This document shows positions 5,176 to 35,434 of a DNA stretch of 57,977 nucleotides, piece after piece. Under the pieces are notes generated by a model. It had not been told where the DNA came from, ran no database searches, and saw nothing but the letters and a program-made list of their open reading frames with translations. Position numbers and translations under genes: made by a program. Each line of letters starts with the position of its first letter. The first letter of the stretch is position 1. The DNA is taken from the IMG/VR virus record IMGVR_UViG_3300006810_000004, positions 1-57,977 of that record; one strand, given 5' to 3'. The DNA comes from a virus.

Positions 5176-7584
5176 TTAACCTCTTTTCCCTGCTAAAGCA
5201 GTTTCAGAACGCAACATTGCTATATCTTCTTCACTTTTTAGCTTCTCTTGTTCTGCTTGATCCTTTTGTTCTAGTTTTTCTCCCTCAAAACCTAGCTTTG
5301 CAACGTCTAATTGTATTTTTTGCTCTGCTAATTGTCTATTTTGGTCAATTTCTTGTGCTCTTAAGTTAATTTCTTGTTGTTTTAGGTCAATAAGAGGGTC
5401 TTCGTCTTTTCTATTCATAAAGTCTTGCTCTTCAGCAACCATATCGTTAGTCATTTCAGTAATTTTATCTGCAATTTCCTTCTCATTCTGCATTTGGAAC
5501 TGCTGCATTAACTCTGGAGGTAGTTGACCACCGAATTGCGCTGCTTGTTCTTCCATAAGTGGAGCATTCTTTGCTTCAATCTCTTCTCTTGCCATTAATG
5601 ATATATGTTCTGATATATGAGATTGCAAGACACCCATTGTAGGAGGGTTGTTAGCAACTAAAAAGGAACTCATAAACGCTCTGTGAGCATTAATGTGTGC
5701 TTCGTGTGCCTGACCAGGAAAGGCTTGAAGTTTCATCATCTGTAAAGCCTTAGAATTCTCCATACCGGGATCTTCAGGTTGCGGTTGAGCAGGTTTTTGT
5801 AATAATTTGTCTACATCTCTTACTCCTAGTGCATCATACATACGTCTGTAAGCTTCATACATGTTGTGCATTTCAGGATTAGAAGTTGCCATTTGTAATT
5901 GCGTTTGAGCAAGGGTAACTCTTTGAGACATAGAGAATATATTTGGATCTGATACAGGTAAGATATCTACTCTCTCATCAAAGTCTGCTTGTTTAATTGT
6001 TCTGTTACCACCTAAAACTGCATAAGGATATTCCTGTGGAAGACTCTCAGCAAAAACTTTTGCTAGTAATTTAAACTCTAACTTTTGTCCGTGGTGTAAT
6101 CTTTTATGAATAGCATTCATAACTTTTGTACCACGTTCCATGATAGCCATGGTAGTACCAACAGGATTAGCTTGTGAACCTTCGCCCATCTTGTTATCTG
6201 CAATCGAAGCAAATCTTCTACCTGCATCTACAACAAATCCTAGTAGTGCAAATAAAGTTTGACTTGGCTCTTTATAAGGAATCAACATTAAGGATTCACG
6301 AATAGCACCACCCGGTGCATCTACATCTCTAAACTCACCAGGCTGTAAAGGTTGATCGTCATCTCTAACTCTAAGTCCTCTCGCTTTAAAACCTGCAGGT
6401 AAGTTTGATAAGGTACCAGCATCAATAAGTTGTCTAAGCGCAGACGTTGCTGTTCTTGATAGACCACCCAACATATGAATAAGACCAAAGCCATAAAATC
6501 CAAGACCCGGTAAAAATTTATAATGAACAAAGTATTGTATTTTTTTACGAAGAGGATCACCTTCTTTGTAGTTTCTATATATAGCTAAAACTTTGCCAGA
6601 CCCTTCATCAATAGTTACAACATAAGGAAGTCTAATACCTGTAGGCTCTCCTGTTTTTTGATCTTTATCTTCAAAGCCAATTATGTCTAAGTCACAGTGA
6701 AATTCTAAAATAGAAATCTCTTCTGCATTGAGAGGCTTATCGACTCCATCTAACTCGTTGTATTTATCTTGAGCATCGGATACAGAATCATCATAAGATG
6801 TTTGAATATCTATATCTCTATATAGTCCACTGAACTGTTTCTTACGTAACTCATTGCTCATCATCTTCACAACGTGCACAAGTCTTTCACAAGAATTTAA
6901 ATCTGTAGTTCCGTAAGGTACAACAACTTCTTCTGCAGGTACAAATTTAGAAACTGCTCTTCCTCTAACTTCATCGTAATAAACTTTTTTGAAGGCACTT
7001 CCGGCTAACGGTAAATGAAATAACATTTGATCTAAATCTTGATCGTACTCTTCCATCTCATAAGAGATTTGATAGTTCATAAATTCTTTAACACGTTGCG
7101 ATTGTGCTTCTGACTCAGGAGTTATCTCTCCTACAATTTGTGTACGAACAGGTCCTTCTGGTGGTAGTAGTTCTTTGTAAGCTTGCGCTTGAAATTGTGT
7201 TACTGTTTCTGCAAGGAGAGGATGAGTAACACCTGATGCGTTAGCAAAAGGTTTTGTTCTATCTTCATATTTAAATCCTAATAAGTCTAATCCATCTGTA
7301 TAAGTTTTTAACCAATCACTACGAGCATCTTTATCGTGGTCATAGTCACTTGTAAGACTTGATGAGATTTGACTTAGTTCACCGTCTTCTAAAAGTTCTG
7401 CAAGGTTAGCGTAGAATGTTTCTTGGTCCGCGGCCTCTGGAGCAGGGTTCACGATCGCCGAACCATCGTCCAGCATCATCGCACCAGCTTCCATCTCAAC
7501 CCCAGGAAGTTCTATTTGAGATTCGTTACCTGCCTCTATTTCTAATTCTATATCTTCGGTAGGGTTGTTTTTTTCTATAGCCAT
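5176..7584 (-). CDS. Portal protein (podovirus-like, 802 aa)
   Basis: Long portal with an acidic N-terminus and 'DWLKTYTDGLDLLGFKYEDR' and 'PFANASGVTHPLLAETVTQF' in the first ~130 residues, the wing/stem core in the middle ('HLPLAGSAFKKVYYDEVRG', 'KIQYFVHYKFLPGLGFYGFG'), and a long Gln/Glu-rich helical barrel region to the C-terminus. It forms the dodecameric DNA gate at one capsid vertex and docks terminase and the tail adaptor. The length matches the long P22-like portals of short-tailed phages. It overlaps the upstream gene by one base. 'NPVGTTMAIMERGTKVMNAI' is a conserved-looking patch in the crown-proximal part. Confidence 0.9.
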   Translation of the reverse strand: MAIEKNNPTEDIELEIEAGNESQIELPGVEMEAGAMMLDDGSAIVNPAPEAADQETFYANLAELLEDGELSQISSSLTSDYDHDKDARSDWLKTYTDGLDLLGFKYEDRTKPFANASGVTHPLLAETVTQFQAQAYKELLPPEGPVRTQIVGEITPESEAQSQRVKEFMNYQISYEMEEYDQDLDQMLFHLPLAGSAFKKVYYDEVRGRAVSKFVPAEEVVVPYGTTDLNSCERLVHVVKMMSNELRKKQFSGLYRDIDIQTSYDDSVSDAQDKYNELDGVDKPLNAEEISILEFHCDLDIIGFEDKDQKTGEPTGIRLPYVVTIDEGSGKVLAIYRNYKEGDPLRKKIQYFVHYKFLPGLGFYGFGLIHMLGGLSRTATSALRQLIDAGTLSNLPAGFKARGLRVRDDDQPLQPGEFRDVDAPGGAIRESLMLIPYKEPSQTLFALLGFVVDAGRRFASIADNKMGEGSQANPVGTTMAIMERGTKVMNAIHKRLHHGQKLEFKLLAKVFAESLPQEYPYAVLGGNRTIKQADFDERVDILPVSDPNIFSMSQRVTLAQTQLQMATSNPEMHNMYEAYRRMYDALGVRDVDKLLQKPAQPQPEDPGMENSKALQMMKLQAFPGQAHEAHINAHRAFMSSFLVANNPPTMGVLQSHISEHISLMAREEIEAKNAPLMEEQAAQFGGQLPPELMQQFQMQNEKEIADKITEMTNDMVAEEQDFMNRKDEDPLIDLKQQEINLRAQEIDQNRQLAEQKIQLDVAKLGFEGEKLEQKDQAEQEKLKSEEDIAMLRSETALAGKRG

Positions 7585-9107
7585 TATCTAATCTTTCTTG
7601 TCAATTGATTGATGTCCATAATACCGCCTTGATTCATTTCTGTAAAGGTTCCGTTTTTTCTTGGAATCATAGTAGGGGTATATGTTTCATCAATATATCT
7701 TTGTTCTCCAGGTGAAATGTATTTAGGTATGAACTCTACTTCTACATCATCTCTACTGCCAAAAGTATTGTTTTCTACATATTTTGTTCCTAGATATTTA
7801 TCGAACATAAAAGGTGTAGCTTTAAATGTAATACCATCAGGTGTTGTTATATAAGCTCCTGATTCAATTAATTCTTCTTTTCTGACTCCAGATGCATTAA
7901 GCCTATCCAAAGGTAAAGGATTTTCTATTGTTCCTAAATTTCTATCTTTAGTTAAAAAAGATGTTACTTTTTCCATAATACCTTCAGGGTCAGCTTTTCT
8001 TATTATCTCTCTTACTTCTAACTTTTCTTTATCTCCTACTAAAGTTCCATTACGCGTTCCTTCTTGATAACCCATAATAGGTCTTGTCATTTTGTTAATG
8101 TCCATCATTCCTCCTTGGTTCATTTTATTTTTCATCATTGCAATTTCATTAATTGCTTCTGTGTCTCCTTCAGCTAATTTTTCACCAGCCTCTTCAAAAG
8201 CTTTCTTGTTTGATTTAGTTCCTTTATACATGTCGAATCCTGTACTAACAACCCCAAGAGGCCCCGCAGCTTTTGCTATCACAGGCAGACTACTTACTAA
8301 TGCAGCTAATATAAGTCTTGCTCCTACTTTATCACCTATTCTAGCAAGCCTTTGTGCTTCATTCAGCATTATATTTTTTACAAACCCTGCTTTACCTGTT
8401 AACTTGCCACCTGCTTCTTTTAATTCTCTATCAACAGCTTTAACAAAATTTTTGGTATCTCCTTTAACAACATATCCTGAAACTTTTTCAAAAATAGGAT
8501 CAAAGACTTTTGTGTTTAATTTATACTTTTTGCCATCAATAACTAATTTGGATTTATCTTTTTCTCCGGCTTCAGTAAACATAGTTTTTAATACATTTTG
8601 ATTACCTGCCATAGCTTCAGAAACATATTTACTTCTTAGTTTTTGATAATCGGGATTAGCTCCTAAAAAAGAAGCACTTTGAGTAGCTGATGAAGCGGCA
8701 TCATCACCTAATGATCTAGCATAATTGATGACATTATCTAAGTAGTTCTTTGCTCCTTTAGCACCAGAGCCTTCTTTTAACTCAGGCATTCCTGAACCTA
8801 CATTAACTGTTTTTACTCTTCCTTTGTTTTTAATCTCTATCTCATCGTCTGCAACATATTTTCTATTTACATCTCTATCTACATTATCATAAGCAGCTGA
8901 TCTTCTTGAACCAGGTTGTTCAGACTGAGCATCTTCAAGTCCAGGGCCTACCTGATCTGGTCCCATACCAACAGAAGAGGTGCCTCCTCCTAATTCATTA
9001 ATTAATGATCCAAGATATTTATTATCTTTAAACATATCGAGAGCTGACTTAACTTCACCACCAGGTGCCATTTTGATAGGCGACGTCATTTCGAAAATAC
9101 TTTTCAT
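7584..9107 (-). CDS. Large hypothetical virion-module protein, three Gly-Gly boxes
   Basis: 507 aa between terminase and portal. A Gly-Gly box lies at residues 15-19 (PGGEV), a second near residue 335 (NQGGMMDINKMTRPI) and a near-copy at the very end (491-507, NQGGIMDINQLTRKIR). The middle is helical with a hydrophobic stretch near residues 265-290 ('ARLILAALVSSLPVIAKAAG'). It lacks catalytic motifs I can name. The near-duplicate MDIN-x-x-TR segments suggest a binding module used twice. Possible roles include internal or ejection protein. Confidence 0.7.
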   Translation of the reverse strand: MKSIFEMTSPIKMAPGGEVKSALDMFKDNKYLGSLINELGGGTSSVGMGPDQVGPGLEDAQSEQPGSRRSAAYDNVDRDVNRKYVADDEIEIKNKGRVKTVNVGSGMPELKEGSGAKGAKNYLDNVINYARSLGDDAASSATQSASFLGANPDYQKLRSKYVSEAMAGNQNVLKTMFTEAGEKDKSKLVIDGKKYKLNTKVFDPIFEKVSGYVVKGDTKNFVKAVDRELKEAGGKLTGKAGFVKNIMLNEAQRLARIGDKVGARLILAALVSSLPVIAKAAGPLGVVSTGFDMYKGTKSNKKAFEEAGEKLAEGDTEAINEIAMMKNKMNQGGMMDINKMTRPIMGYQEGTRNGTLVGDKEKLEVREIIRKADPEGIMEKVTSFLTKDRNLGTIENPLPLDRLNASGVRKEELIESGAYITTPDGITFKATPFMFDKYLGTKYVENNTFGSRDDVEVEFIPKYISPGEQRYIDETYTPTMIPRKNGTFTEMNQGGIMDINQLTRKIR

Positions 9108-19950: not shown

Positions 19951-21957
19951 TTAAAATTTTATAAAGTCATCGTCATTTGAAAGCTCATCTTTTTTGCCAC
20001 CTAATCTAGTTTTATCACTAAATTTAAAAAGCTCTTTGTCTACAAGTTGACCCTTTGTAGCATCTTTAATCATTTCTCCTGTGAAAGGATCAAACACACG
20101 AACTGTGTCTGTGTCTAATTTTTTAGTATTAACAACGATTTCATTCTCAGCTTCTTTTCCTCTCATTACTAAATCTTTAGCGTTGATGTAAACTTCTTGT
20201 AAAACTAAATTATTTCTATTTTTACCTAAACCTTCACTGTAATCTATTAAATTATGAAGACTTAAAGCCCGTTCAGGATCTAATGAATAAGAATTTATAT
20301 CTTTTTCTAATGAAGGCATACCTTTTCTGTAAGCTTCCATATCACCACGAACTAAACGATAAGCCGGAAATGTTTCTCCTAAATGTTCTTTTGCAGATTC
20401 TTGAATTAATTTTTTATACTCAGGGTAATAAGAAAGTTTCTTTAGCTTTTTAAAAGCGTCTGCATTTCCTAAATCTCCGACTCCTCCATGATATTGATTT
20501 TCATAAAATTCATGAGCGGGTATGTTTTGTCCATACTCATATTTTTGATTTTCTGGTTTATTTAATTCTTTAATGTCAAACATTACATCAATATTATTAG
20601 AAGCGTCATAAAAAGATTCTTTTGCCTCTTCTGTACCAAAATATGTTTCTTTTTCTTTATTTTGAATTTGTGATTCTAAAATATCTTCTAAAGGATTTTC
20701 AGTAGTCTTTTTTGGTTCAACTTTTTTACCATCCCCCTCATATCCAAGAAATTTTATTCCTGATGCAAAGCCACCATCTTCATTTTGAAATAAACTTGTT
20801 TTCATTAATTTTTCTCCTAAATTTGCAATAGATTGACCGTGAGTATAAGAACCTTGTGTATAATCAATATATTCTTGTGATTCTACACCATCTGGTATAT
20901 TTATAACACTTGCCTTTACATGAACAGGAATATATTTATCAGGATCTAAATTTTCAAAATATTTAGCTCTATGTCTTCCTTCATGATGCGTCACTTTAAA
21001 GTCTCCAGTATTAAAATCTTCGTGCATATCTAATGTAGGAATTGAAATACCTGTTTTATTTTTTTCATATAGTTCAAATGCTCGGTCATTTCTGTCTATC
21101 ATTTCTTCTTCCGAAAAGGATAAACCTTTAGCTAATCTTAAAAAATCTCCAGGTTTCATGTAAGTTAGAACATATTTAGCTGTATTGGTATATGCTCCAG
21201 GAAAACTATCACCCGACTCTGACCAAAAATTGTTTGCATAAGGGGCATCAAGAACAAACTGTCCTCTTTTTTTATCTTTTTCTCTGTAATCTATATTAGG
21301 ATCTCCTACACTTCTTTCTAAAGCTTCTCCAAACACTGCGTCACCTAAATTTTTATCTTCTTTAAGTTTATCGATTACCATTTGATTATAATTTTCTGCC
21401 ATATTAATAAATTTATCATTTATATCTTCTTCTGACTTTTGTATAAAATCAGAAACCTTAGGTGGTGCAGGCATAGGTGTAACATTACTGTAGTCTATGT
21501 TTTTTTCTTCAGGGGTAGATAAAAGTCCTGGAAGTTTTTCAGGGACAGGTGTTATTAAAGGGTCTGATTTAATATCATCAGCAAAAGTAGTTTGTTTCCC
21601 TAATCCTCTATTAAATTCTGCTTGTCTATCAATATCATCTTGATCAGGTGAAGACCAAATTCCCCTTGGTGTACTAGTAATTTTATTCAGAATAGAGGTC
21701 AGATTACCCCCTCTTAAAATACTATAGATATCGTCAATCGGAATGTTTATTAATTTATTATCATCTTCTATTTTACTTTCTAAAATATCTTCTAAAGGAT
21801 TTAAAGAATAGGAAGCAGGATTTATTAAGGATGACAAGCCCTCTTTTAAGTATTCTAGACCTTTAGGATCTGTTTGAGAAGCTACGGCTGCTCCTCCTGC
21901 TAATAAAGGAAGATATCTAGCTATTCCTTGTAATGGTAATGATACTAATGGCCCCAT
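19951..21957 (-). CDS. 668-aa protein with ADP-ribosyltransferase-like C-terminal domain
   Basis: N-terminus hydrophobic and Gly/Ala-rich to about residue 27. Two near-identical NPLEDILES linkers (53-61, 421-429) separate parts. The middle part (about 220-360) has 'VTHHEGRHRA' at 322-331 followed by 'YIPVHVKASVINIPDG', a motif I have seen in phage polyvalent-type proteins. The C-terminal part (about 500-625) shows the R-S-E layout of ADP-ribosyltransferases: 'AYRLVRGD' with R534, 'NSYSLDPERA' with S556-x-S558, and 'EAENEIVV' with E604-x-E606. It may modify host proteins, perhaps after injection. No close gene partner; a 120-base gap precedes it. Confidence 0.65.
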   Translation of the reverse strand: MGPLVSLPLQGIARYLPLLAGGAAVASQTDPKGLEYLKEGLSSLINPASYSLNPLEDILESKIEDDNKLINIPIDDIYSILRGGNLTSILNKITSTPRGIWSSPDQDDIDRQAEFNRGLGKQTTFADDIKSDPLITPVPEKLPGLLSTPEEKNIDYSNVTPMPAPPKVSDFIQKSEEDINDKFINMAENYNQMVIDKLKEDKNLGDAVFGEALERSVGDPNIDYREKDKKRGQFVLDAPYANNFWSESGDSFPGAYTNTAKYVLTYMKPGDFLRLAKGLSFSEEEMIDRNDRAFELYEKNKTGISIPTLDMHEDFNTGDFKVTHHEGRHRAKYFENLDPDKYIPVHVKASVINIPDGVESQEYIDYTQGSYTHGQSIANLGEKLMKTSLFQNEDGGFASGIKFLGYEGDGKKVEPKKTTENPLEDILESQIQNKEKETYFGTEEAKESFYDASNNIDVMFDIKELNKPENQKYEYGQNIPAHEFYENQYHGGVGDLGNADAFKKLKKLSYYPEYKKLIQESAKEHLGETFPAYRLVRGDMEAYRKGMPSLEKDINSYSLDPERALSLHNLIDYSEGLGKNRNNLVLQEVYINAKDLVMRGKEAENEIVVNTKKLDTDTVRVFDPFTGEMIKDATKGQLVDKELFKFSDKTRLGGKKDELSNDDDFIKF

Positions 21958-22339: not shown

Positions 22340-22530
22340 GTATTAGGAGTATTACCCAATGCATAATTTTCTACTACAATGAGCGCTCTAAAATAATCTT
22401 TTTCCTTAATAGGTAATCTTTCCCAATCATCGTATCTAAATTTTTTACTGACACTGATAAACCGTAGGCGTTTGGCCCGTTGATCGAGATCAGTCTTTTG
22501 AGGATACTGAGGATGAATATCTGTAATCAT
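22336..22530 (-). CDS. Small hypothetical protein
   Basis: 64 aa, MITDIHPQYPQKTDLDQRAK..., with 'RLRFISVSKKFRYDDWERLP' and 'YFRALIVVENYALGNTPNT'. Coupled by ATGA overlaps to the oxygenase upstream and the Arg-rich peptide downstream. No recognised domain. Confidence 0.65.
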   Translation of the reverse strand: MITDIHPQYPQKTDLDQRAKRLRFISVSKKFRYDDWERLPIKEKDYFRALIVVENYALGNTPNT

Positions 22531-23189
22531 CCATGAACACCTTTAATAGGCACACTAGAATTAAACTGTATGTTAAAAGCCATGGATCGTCTTTCTCCTT
22601 CACTTCTAAATGGGTAGACTTGATGAGCTAACCAACTAGGAAACAAATAAAAATCTCCTACTTCCGGTTTTACTAAATAACTATGCCTTGAGAAAGTATG
22701 AGGAAGAGATCCTAAGAACTCTAAACATCCGACGGTGGCATGATGATCTTCTTGAGCGTATTCTTCTTCTAACTTATCGGGAACTTTTAAAAAAGCTACA
22801 CCTGAAAGATTAGAGTCATGAATGTGAATAGGATTAAAGTCTCCTTGATATTGACTAACAACCCAACTTGTAAGAGATAATGAAGTCCCTGATGGAACTG
22901 CACCAGGTACAATTTTATTGACATACTCTTGAGCTAAAGCTACATAAAATTGCTTGAGTCCCGGAATCTTATCTTCTGAAATCTTTATCTCTTTTTTAAC
23001 GTTACCTGCTAGATTTTGACTGTAGTCATACTCTTTGGATAAGTCTTCACTATTTAAAATCCTATCAGATTCTTTATTTATATTTTCTACGTAAAAAGCA
23101 GGGAGTTTCGTTTTTAGTATACTAGGTCCAAATGGTTGATAAATTTCATAACTTAATTTGTCGTCACTTTTCTTTTTTTCTTCAGTCAT
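22527..23189 (-). CDS. 2-oxoglutarate/Fe(II)-dependent oxygenase (TehpiQ-like)
   Basis: 220 aa. The double-stranded beta-helix signature is visible: 'NPIHIHDSNLSGVAFLKVP' supplies the first iron ligands, 'VGDFYLFPSWLAHQVYPF' the distal His, and 'GERRSMAFNIQF' the Arg that binds 2-oxoglutarate. This matches the putative 2OG-Fe(II) oxygenase family (2OG-FeII_Oxy_5) frequent in marine phages, where it is viewed as an auxiliary metabolic or DNA/protein-modifying enzyme; the substrate is unknown. It overlaps its neighbours by 4-8 bases in the replication operon. Confidence 0.8.
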   Translation of the reverse strand: MTEEKKKSDDKLSYEIYQPFGPSILKTKLPAFYVENINKESDRILNSEDLSKEYDYSQNLAGNVKKEIKISEDKIPGLKQFYVALAQEYVNKIVPGAVPSGTSLSLTSWVVSQYQGDFNPIHIHDSNLSGVAFLKVPDKLEEEYAQEDHHATVGCLEFLGSLPHTFSRHSYLVKPEVGDFYLFPSWLAHQVYPFRSEGERRSMAFNIQFNSSVPIKGVHG

Positions 23190-33209: not shown

Positions 33210-33346
33210 TATTTACCTTGTCCTCTGTATTTTTTGTATGAGCGTCTTTTATGTTTGTTCATTGCTGACATTTTCATACGACCGTTACCAATAGAAGTTC
33301 CTTTAGGCTTGTGCTCTAAATTACTTACTATAGTTTGTTTTGCCAT
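33209..33346 (-). CDS. 45-aa basic microprotein
   Basis: MAKQTIVSNLEHKPKGTSIG..., ending KKYRGQGK. Strongly basic in its second half ('MNKHKRRSYKKYRGQGK'). TAATG overlaps at both ends make it part of a tightly coupled operon. Likely a nucleic-acid-binding or head-associated peptide; function unknown. Confidence 0.6.
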   Translation of the reverse strand: MAKQTIVSNLEHKPKGTSIGNGRMKMSAMNKHKRRSYKKYRGQGK

Positions 33347-34929
33347 TATTTATATTGTGCGTCTATCATTTGATCGTAAACAGTTTTACTACCGCCAAAT
33401 AATACGTATCCAGCTATATTATTATCAGAAATCGCTGTGTCAGGCAATGTATCATTATTAAAAAAACCCTCTATATTAGGTATGCTTTGTTGTACATCAA
33501 AAAAGTCTTTTGAATTACTTAATATATTCATAACTATTAAAGTTTTAATTTGATTACCTGCCTCGTATCTGCCTTTGTCACCCATGTTTTTAACTATTTT
33601 TGTAGCTGCTTTTTGTTTAGCTGTAGGTTCTTTTTTAGGTTCCTCAACTTCTTTCTCTACTTCTTCAGGCTCGGGTTCTTGTTCTGGTTCGGTTTCAATT
33701 TCTTCTGCCTCTTGTTTTGTTTCTTCAGGTTCTGCCTCCGGTTCGGGTTCCGTGGTCTCTGGCTCAGGTTCCATTTCAGGCTCTTGTATGTCTTCTTGAG
33801 CGGTCTCGGGTTCAGGTTCAGTAGACTCATTATCCATAGTAGTCTCCACAATAGGCTCTTCTGTTGACTCAATATTTACTACCTCCATTTGTTCAGGTTC
33901 TGGAATATCCATCTCCATTTCAATATCCATTTCAACTGAAGCCACTGTTATTTCCATAGGCATTTCCATATCCATGTCCATGTTTGTAGGCACCATAACA
34001 ATGTCAGGCATATCATATTCCATATTCATATCCATATCCATTTGAAAATCCATTTCAAACTCTTGCATTTCCATTTCTACAGACTCAAAAGAAAATTCTT
34101 CTACAGGTGCTTCTATAGCTTGAAAGGTAAAATCATCTGTAACTTCATTATTATCAAATATCATTTCTGCAACATCGTTAGCATCTTGACCGTAGTCTAA
34201 AACTAAAAACTCTTCAAGTTCTTGTATCTGTTGATTAACAATTGTAGTTACCACGTTGTAAAGTATATTGATCGAAACGTCATCAAAGACTGGTCCTACG
34301 GCAAGAGAAATATCACGCCCTCCTACCTCAACTATAATTTTATTTAGAAAGCCAGAGAAATCGAAACTACCGGAATACTGTTGGTAGCCTGATGTAACTC
34401 CAGATTCAGATAAGATATCAGTTCCTGTAAAAACTTCAGTATTTCCATATTTTCCTGTTACATGCATATAGATACGATCAGAGGGATCTTGTTTATCTAC
34501 TTTAATTGTATAATTAGTTTCACCACCATGTGTAATTGTTAAATCAGATATGTCAATAGTATTGATAAAAGTTGTACCCATACCTGTAACACCCATAGTA
34601 GAAGTTGTATTTCCACTACCTGTAATTTGTGCACATTTATCAGTACCTAAACCATAACAAGAATTACCTGTAGGCATACTAGCAGGTCCTTCGCCTCCCC
34701 AATCAGAATCCATATCACCTTCTTTAGTAGAAGTTACATAACCATTAGAGCCATCTAATAGGTCTCCTGAATCTTGATGAGTAACTATAGTGTCTGTTAT
34801 TTCTGAGCCTGATGCTTCACTAGTTGTACCTGGCGTACAAAGACCAGTTGTTTCTGTAGTGCAAACTGCGTAAAGATTAGAATAGAAGCAGGAGAGTAAT
34901 ACCACCAAGAATATATTTCTTAATATCAT
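33346..34929 (-). CDS. Exported acidic protein with Met/Asp/Glu-rich repeats
   Basis: 527 aa from ATG at 34929 (MILRNIFLVVLLSCFYSNLY, then A-V), chosen because AAGGACAT precedes it and a signal peptide begins there; the longer upstream frame overlaps the previous gene further. The N-terminal half is Thr/Ser/Gly-rich and beta. Residues roughly 275-345 alternate Met with Asp/Glu ('MDMDMNMEYDMPDIVMV'), followed by a Glu-Pro-rich tract ('EPEPE' units) and a basic-acidic C-terminal domain. No family recognised for the repeats. It may be a secreted or envelope-bound protein, perhaps metal-binding. Confidence 0.65.
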   Translation of the reverse strand: MILRNIFLVVLLSCFYSNLYAVCTTETTGLCTPGTTSEASGSEITDTIVTHQDSGDLLDGSNGYVTSTKEGDMDSDWGGEGPASMPTGNSCYGLGTDKCAQITGSGNTTSTMGVTGMGTTFINTIDISDLTITHGGETNYTIKVDKQDPSDRIYMHVTGKYGNTEVFTGTDILSESGVTSGYQQYSGSFDFSGFLNKIIVEVGGRDISLAVGPVFDDVSINILYNVVTTIVNQQIQELEEFLVLDYGQDANDVAEMIFDNNEVTDDFTFQAIEAPVEEFSFESVEMEMQEFEMDFQMDMDMNMEYDMPDIVMVPTNMDMDMEMPMEITVASVEMDIEMEMDIPEPEQMEVVNIESTEEPIVETTMDNESTEPEPETAQEDIQEPEMEPEPETTEPEPEAEPEETKQEAEEIETEPEQEPEPEEVEKEVEEPKKEPTAKQKAATKIVKNMGDKGRYEAGNQIKTLIVMNILSNSKDFFDVQQSIPNIEGFFNNDTLPDTAISDNNIAGYVLFGGSKTVYDQMIDAQYK

Positions 34930-35434
34930 TATGTCCTTCTTTTTTAGGTTCTTCTTTATTTTTTTGTTGTTCTTCTGTTTTAGCCATAGCTGCAAATACT
35001 TGACTACCTTCAGGTACCATGTGAGGATTATCTAACCAACCTTGTTTGGCTGAGTCGCCTATGGAACCCATGTACGGACAAAAACTGGCTGACATCCACA
35101 TTGCATCAAAAATTCTAGGGTCTGCGCAGAGCGTAGCAACCGCAGCTACTCGCATATTCATACCAAATAAACTACGAGCTAGCTTAATCATTTCACAATT
35201 TGTGTCTTTGATTGTTATACCTGAACTAATACCTAAGACTTGAGTTTGTACACTTCCTGAATATCCACTCGTACATACATCACTATTATTAACCACAACA
35301 CTTGGGCTATTTGCTGTAGGCGGTGTATTGTTTGTTACAACGGTTGATGATACGGTATTTGAGTCTGCTGCATGTAAATCTACAAAAGTAGCTGTTGCTC
35401 CAAATACAAATAATATAGTTAGTAATAGCTTCAT
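34877..35434 (-). CDS. Exported protein with C-terminal membrane segment
   Basis: 185 aa. Signal peptide 'MKLLLTILFVFGATATFVDL', then a Thr/Val/Asn-rich part and a Cys-containing domain ('DVCTSGYSGSVQTQVLGISS', 'MIKLARSLFGMNMRVAAVAT', 'FCPYMGSIGDSA'). A Glu/Lys linker leads to a C-terminal hydrophobic helix ('YILGGITLLLLF'). I think proteins with this 'SGYSGSVQ...KLARSL' pattern occur in marine myoviruses and podoviruses; role not known. It overlaps the next gene by about 53 bases. Confidence 0.65.
   Translation of the reverse strand: MKLLLTILFVFGATATFVDLHAADSNTVSSTVVTNNTPPTANSPSVVVNNSDVCTSGYSGSVQTQVLGISSGITIKDTNCEMIKLARSLFGMNMRVAAVATLCADPRIFDAMWMSASFCPYMGSIGDSAKQGWLDNPHMVPEGSQVFAAMAKTEEQQKNKEEPKKEGHNDIKKYILGGITLLLLF

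What the first reader, a model, noticed from the sequence alone, without database searches (positions are those of the whole stretch)
19951..21957. ADP-ribosyltransferase-like domain in a 668-aa phage protein
Seen: 'AYRLVRGD' (R534), 'NSYSLDPERA' (S556-x-S558) and 'EAENEIVV' (E604-x-E606) in the right order within about 75 residues, plus an upstream 'VTHHEGRHRA' (322-331) and two NPLEDILES linkers. Known: R-S-E ADP-ribosyltransferases carry an Arg in strand 1, an S-T/x-S motif and a catalytic E/Q-x-E; phage examples (T4 Alt, ModA, ModB) modify host RNA polymerase or ribosomal proteins, and Alt is injected. Inference: this is a host take-over enzyme, perhaps virion-delivered given its hydrophobic N-terminus. 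The combination with the HEGRHRA-type domain may be undescribed.
Basis: partly seen in the sequence, partly recalled or inferred. Interest (0 to 1): 0.75.

Follow-up and report, generated by a model that had tools for sequence, protein, structure and literature searches.

The report
Modular phage ADP-ribosyltransferase–ParB effector protein
A phage related to those that infect the ocean's commonest bacteria encodes a multi-part protein joining a ParB/sulfiredoxin-like part to a probable ADP-ribosyltransferase that no family database recognises; it is one of a set of mix-and-match proteins that these phages probably inject to take over the host.

Summary
In detail: a 668-aa ORF (minus strand, 19951-21957) holds R534, S556-x-S558, E604-x-E606 and VTHHEGRHRA (322-331), as stated. 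The motif alone is weak (it turns up in about 5% of shuffles), so I tested conservation and fold. Thirteen ART-region sequences from IMG/VR phages, in three groups only 29-38% identical to the window's across groups, keep R534, S556, E604 and E606 without exception; 558 is S or T. An AlphaFold2 model built on these places R534 in a first strand, SxS in the next strand and E606 at the start of a later strand; its best PDB matches include ADP-ribosyltransferases (TreX/TreTu entries, Vis). The HEGRHRA part is a widespread phage ParB/sulfiredoxin-fold domain. Homologues show a modular family: shared N-termini with swapped ParB, ART, GNAT or methyltransferase parts, often encoded between terminase and portal. 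This matches the 'polyvalent protein' theme (injected multi-domain effectors), but published polyvalent ARTs were H-Y-D, and R-S-E ones were stated to be absent from genuine polyvalent proteins. So: probable R-S-E ART, probably virion-delivered, a new variant of a known kind. Catalysis, target and packaging are untested. Profile comparison with T4 Alt/ModA/ModB was not significant.

The parts
19951..21957 (-). whole gene, 668 aa modular (polyvalent-type) protein
   Evidence: 100% identical IMG/VR copies L001/L002
21739..21957 (-). residues 1-73: hydrophobic N-terminal module shared by family members that carry different domains
   Evidence: 85-97% identical in L003, L005, L007; recognisably similar in L065, L152, L153
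21382..21744 (-). residues 72-192: linker region 88% identical to the terminase-portal slot protein L006 and absent from L003/L005 (mosaic junction)
20788..21255 (-). residues 235-390: ParB/sulfiredoxin-like (HEGRHRA) domain; modelled core about 262-352
20965..20994 (-). VTHHEGRHRA motif (322-331); H325 E326 G327 R328 R330 A331 invariant in the 57 sequences that cover it
21775..21801 (-). NPLEDILES linker, copy 1 (53-61)
20671..20697 (-). NPLEDILES linker, copy 2 (421-429)
20020..20616 (-). residues 448-646: ADP-ribosyltransferase-like domain
20356..20358 (-). R534, predicted NAD-binding Arg of strand 1 (model strand 529-537)
   Evidence: invariant
20284..20292 (-). S556-x-S558 (model strand 554-558); 556 invariant, 558 S or T
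20140..20148 (-). E604-x-E606, predicted catalytic ExE (E606 starts strand 606-610)
   Evidence: invariant

Best explanation
A multi-domain phage effector of the polyvalent-protein kind. SHOWN by computation: a hydrophobic N-terminal module shared by relatives with different domains, a ParB/sulfiredoxin-like domain, and a C-terminal domain whose model has the ART order of strands with invariant R, S and E-x-E positions. INFERRED: it is made late, packaged in the capsid and ejected with the DNA into a Pelagibacter-like host. INFERRED: the ART part uses NAD+ to put ADP-ribose on a host protein; the E-x-E form (rather than Q-x-E) suggests arginine as acceptor, from general knowledge of R-S-E ARTs. 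INFERRED: the ParB-like part binds or hydrolyses a nucleotide, or nicks DNA, as other members of that fold do. The host target is unknown; transcription or translation factors are the precedent (T4 Alt, ModA, ModB).
For: R534, S556, E604 and E606 are invariant in 13 sequences, the other groups being 29-38% identical to the window's, while only 30 of 199 positions are invariant. AF2 model from 68 aligned sequences: mean pLDDT 72, with 10-residue blocks of 84-93 over most of the ART core and 85-90 over much of the ParB core; R534 in strand 529-537, SxS in 554-558, E606 at 606-610. Foldseek against PDB: top matches TreX/TreTu toxin entries (best E 2.3e-3, prob 0.97), Vis ART (4xzk), IcmQ and heat-labile enterotoxin A chain on the ART side; sulfiredoxins and Osa on the ParB/Srx side. 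BFVD matches named ParB/Sulfiredoxin. Full-length homologue L065 with the same architecture at 36% identity. Modular relatives with GNAT (7e-7), methyltransferase (3e-4), ART-PolyVal (2e-13). Gene between TerL/TerS and portal in L006, L010, L024, L048, L110, L142, L150. dN/dS 0.13-0.55 for the ART domain. Literature: ARTs are frequent in polyvalent proteins predicted to be injected, and phage ARTs are often encoded next to terminase/portal (PMC5512222; PMC9503650).
Against: No Pfam match and no significant PHROG match for the ART part. No PDB structure match reached E<=0.001. The chain matched in the TreX/TreTu entries was not checked to be the toxin rather than its immunity protein. hhalign with T4 Alt and ModA/ModB profiles gave probabilities near 0.2%, the same as the negative control, on very shallow profiles. 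The first AF2 run on close relatives only was poor (pLDDT 40). In this window the gene lies between replication genes and the TerS/lysozyme region, not beside portal, so late expression and packaging are not shown.
Confidence: 0.72

Rival explanations
1. Same ART enzyme, but made inside the infected cell rather than packaged, working like T4 ModA/ModB.
For: In this window and in L003-L005, L065, L152 and L153 the gene is away from the portal; ModA/ModB are phage ARTs that, unlike Alt, are not injected (T4 annotation; PMC5512222).
Against: Homologues with the same ART sit between terminase and portal with large polyvalent-type architectures; the hydrophobic N-terminus is conserved while the cargo changes.
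Confidence: 0.25
2. ART fold without ADP-ribosylation: an inactive NAD-binding or binding-only domain, as in IcmQ.
For: IcmQ (4eyy) is among the structural matches; low sequence similarity to any active ART.
Against: All four predicted catalytic positions are invariant while most of the domain has diverged.
Confidence: 0.12
3. Not an ART: the R, SxS and ExE are coincidental in an unrelated fold.
For: The loose motif occurs in about 5% of shuffles; no family match; profile comparison with T4 ARTs not significant.
Against: Conservation of exactly those residues, their placement on strands in the model, ART structures among the best PDB matches.
Confidence: 0.1
4. It belongs to the known polyvalent ART family (ART-PolyVal, Tox-ART-HYD2) with an H-Y-D active site.
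For: That family occurs fused to the same HEGRHR domain in L053.
Against: No PF18760 match for any of 13 members at E<=10; the invariant residues fit R-S-E, with R at the strand-1 position.
Confidence: 0.04

Closest known systems
Polyvalent proteins of phages (Iyer et al. 2017, PMC5512222)
   Same: Several effector domains in one phage polypeptide: ART, ParB/Srx, GNAT; homologues beside terminase and portal; predicted to be injected.
   Different: There the ARTs are H-Y-D (Tox-ART-HYD2) and R-S-E ARTs are stated not to occur in genuine polyvalent proteins; here the ART residues fit R-S-E. The ParB-like part is not matched by a Pfam ddrB-type ParB model.
Phage T4 Alt / ModA / ModB (Alt/VIP2 and Mod families, R-S-E)
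   Same: Y-R, S-x-S-L-x-P and E-x-E-[IV] motifs look alike by eye in Alt; phage ARTs acting on the host.
   Different: No significant profile similarity; Alt has no ParB-like domain that I know of.
MuF- or portal-fused phage ARTs (PMC9503650)
   Same: R-S-E (Alt/VIP2) ARTs fused to head proteins and probably injected.
   Different: No MuF or portal domain was detected here; joined to a ParB/Srx domain and an N-terminal hydrophobic module.
Osa / sulfiredoxin / ParB fold (PFIN, ParB_N)
   Same: The HEGRHRA domain shares the fold and a G-x-H-R-like motif.
   Different: Too divergent for Pfam recognition in most members.

Membership tests
ADP-ribosyltransferase superfamily, R-S-E clade | Invariant R (strand 1), S-x-[ST] (strand 2), [EQ]-x-E (later strand) | tested here: met
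ADP-ribosyltransferase superfamily, R-S-E clade | ART split beta-sandwich fold | tested here: inconclusive
   AF2 core confident and ART structures among the top PDB matches, but best E 2.3e-3 and the query had two domains
ADP-ribosyltransferase superfamily, R-S-E clade | NAD+-dependent ADP-ribose transfer | not testable with these tools
   needs an assay
T4 Alt/VIP2 or Mod family | Significant profile similarity | tested here: not met
   hhalign probability about 0.2%, equal to the negative control; profiles shallow, Neff about 2
ART-PolyVal (PF18760, H-Y-D) | Match to the Pfam model / H-Y-D triad | tested here: not met
   no match for 13 members
Polyvalent protein | Two or more effector domains in one phage polypeptide | tested here: met
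   ParB/Srx + ART here; + GNAT in L003/L142; methyltransferase in L048
Polyvalent protein | Packaged in the virion and injected | not testable with these tools
   only genomic context
ParB/sulfiredoxin superfamily | Fold and conserved Arg-containing motif | tested here: met
   Foldseek to sulfiredoxins and Osa, E 0.016-0.45; ParB/Sulfiredoxin-named viral models, best E 2.2e-6; phrog_26754 1.6e-5 in one member; motif invariant in 57 sequences
DdrB-like ParB (polyvalent ParB family) | Match to a ddrB-type Pfam model | tested here: not met
   no such match among 60 members at E<=0.1; that Pfam-A holds such a model is from memory

The most novel reading that the evidence does not exclude
HTVC023P-type marine phages carry a combinatorial, virion-delivered effector system: a constant N-terminal packaging or translocation module with interchangeable ParB/Srx, R-S-E ART, GNAT and methyltransferase cargo, held at two loci that exchange modules through repeated linkers, the ART being a family not previously described.
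Probability: 0.35. Interest if true: 0.65.

Novelty: new variant of a known kind. Interest (0 to 1): 0.5.

Why it matters
SAR11 bacteria and their phages are among the most abundant organisms in the sea, yet how these phages take over the cell is little known. A defined, domain-sized, probably NAD-using effector with named catalytic residues makes this testable, and it would extend polyvalent proteins to R-S-E ARTs, which the original survey said they lacked.

Tried and rejected
Pfam, PHROGs, PDB sequence search and phage-genome tblastn with the whole protein gave nothing significant. AF2 on close ART relatives alone failed (pLDDT 40); a deeper mixed alignment worked. A first mixed alignment (A10) put ParB tails into the ART columns and was discarded. 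A genome-contig scan found no relative. hhalign with T4 Alt and Mod profiles was not significant. R537 was considered as the catalytic Arg and rejected: R534 is the invariant one. H-Y-D ART-PolyVal membership rejected. The phrog_16216 match over 594-633 (E 0.003-0.016) was not followed further; that family has no known function. The promoter and terminator scan around the gene found no more sites than shuffles.

Full report
What is there. The window is a virus record of 57,977 bases; its terminase large subunit is 67.5% and 65.7% identical to those of phage 023Pt_psg01 and Pelagibacter phage HTVC027P, so it is close to the HTVC023P-type marine podoviruses described in PMC9599517. The host is inferred from that relationship.

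The motif by itself is weak. A loose R / SxS / ExE pattern of this spacing appears in 4.85% of shuffles of the protein and in 3 of 40 long stop-free stretches of the window. No Pfam model matches the protein even at E<=10, and PDB sequence and phage-genome searches found nothing significant; the only PHROG match is weak (E 0.003-0.016, phrog_16216, unknown function).

Conservation. IMG/VR scans gave three groups of homologous domains: the window's group; L065, L142, L143, L144 and L150; and L152, L153. The other two groups are 29-38% identical to the window's domain. In the 13-sequence alignment 30 of 199 positions are invariant, among them R534, S556, E604 and E606; 558 is S or T. R537 is not conserved. 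dN/dS between members is 0.13-0.55, so the domain is under purifying selection.

Fold. A first AlphaFold2 run on close relatives failed (pLDDT 40). A second run, residues 235-646 with 68 aligned sequences, gave mean pLDDT 72 and pTM 0.54, with confident cores. R534 lies in strand 529-537, S556-x-S558 in strand 554-558, followed by helix 561-574; E606 starts strand 606-610. Foldseek against the PDB lists, as its best matches, the TreX/TreTu Rhs toxin entries (E 2.3e-3 to 2.2e-2), human sulfiredoxin, the ART Vis, IcmQ, and further down Osa and the heat-labile enterotoxin A chain. Two folds are therefore recognised, ART and ParB/sulfiredoxin. Cautions: no match reached E<=0.001, the query had two domains so TM-scores are low, and I did not check that the matched chains of the TreX/TreTu entries are the toxin rather than the immunity protein.

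The HEGRHRA domain. The domain occurs in short proteins and in proteins of up to about 3,500 aa. In a 60-member alignment H, E, G, R, R and A of the motif are invariant. Evidence for ParB/Srx: the only PDB profile matches are SbnI, a protein I know as ParB-like (E 0.3, not significant alone); ParB_N and PFIN matches in a few members; phrog_26754 'ParB-like partition nuclease' in one (1.6e-5); sulfiredoxin and Osa by fold; ParB/Sulfiredoxin-named viral models. No ddrB-type ParB Pfam match was seen.

Architecture and context. The family is modular. L003/L004 have a GNAT inserted before the ART (PF00583 7e-7); L005 lacks the ParB part; L065 has the same order as the window at 36% identity; L048 has ParB plus methyltransferase; L142 has GNAT plus ART plus a long C-terminal region; L012 has ParB alone, just upstream of terminase. 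The window gene is itself a mosaic: residues 1-73 and 404-668 are 97% and 92.5% identical to L003, while 72-192 is 88% identical to L006 and missing from L003. NPLEDILES linkers are repeated within the gene (27 nt at 89%, 49 nt at 78%), which could serve as recombination junctions (inference). In L006, L010, L024, L048, L110, L142 and L150 the gene lies between terminase and portal, or directly beside the one of the two that the contig still holds; in the window, L003-L005, L065, L152 and L153 it lies elsewhere, mostly near the lysozyme gene.

Comparison with the literature. Polyvalent proteins were defined as multi-domain phage and plasmid effectors predicted to be injected; [quoted passage not shown] A later survey reports R-S-E ARTs fused to MuF head proteins, and phage ARTs encoded near terminase and portal (PMC9503650). 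The window protein combines a ParB/Srx domain with an ART whose invariant residues fit R-S-E. A HEGRHR domain fused to the polyvalent ART family occurs in L053 (ART-PolyVal 2e-13), so the pairing of these two kinds of domain is not unique; the R-S-E pairing was not found described in the papers searched. hhalign of the ART alignment with T4 Alt and with ModA/ModB relatives was not significant and equal to a negative control; the profiles were shallow (Neff about 2), so this neither files it in nor excludes it from the Alt/VIP2/Mod clade.

Verdict. Probable R-S-E ADP-ribosyltransferase in a modular, probably virion-delivered effector: a new variant of a known kind. Catalysis, acceptor, target and packaging remain to be tested.

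Noticed in passing
window 7584-9107 (two sites); L006, L029, L114, L142 C-termini; L017 DSL-LC04 PcfJ-like protein: A short GG-x-[MV]-D-I-N-x-[LMI] motif, often followed by T-R, recurs in terminase-portal slot proteins, mostly at the extreme C-terminus; possible packaging or processing signal.
   Followed up: partly
L152:2895-4337, L153:3306-4571: An extra roughly 110-aa C-terminal domain follows the ART; L152 has no Pfam match.
   Followed up: no
L144: Contig carries long minus-strand ORFs at its start that read like DNA gyrase subunits beside a truncated ART gene; probably a chimeric assembly.
   Followed up: no
window 22527-23189: 2OG-Fe(II) oxygenase (phrog_81, E 9e-33) just upstream of the effector gene; also present at the same place in L001, L003, L004, L005 and L007.
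   Followed up: no
window 33346-34995: 549-aa ORF with a long acidic M/E/P-rich low-complexity stretch, no clear family.
   Followed up: no
L048:2962-5217: ParB-like domain joined to a methyltransferase (PF13489 3e-4, below the Pfam cut-off) in the terminase-portal slot.
   Followed up: partly
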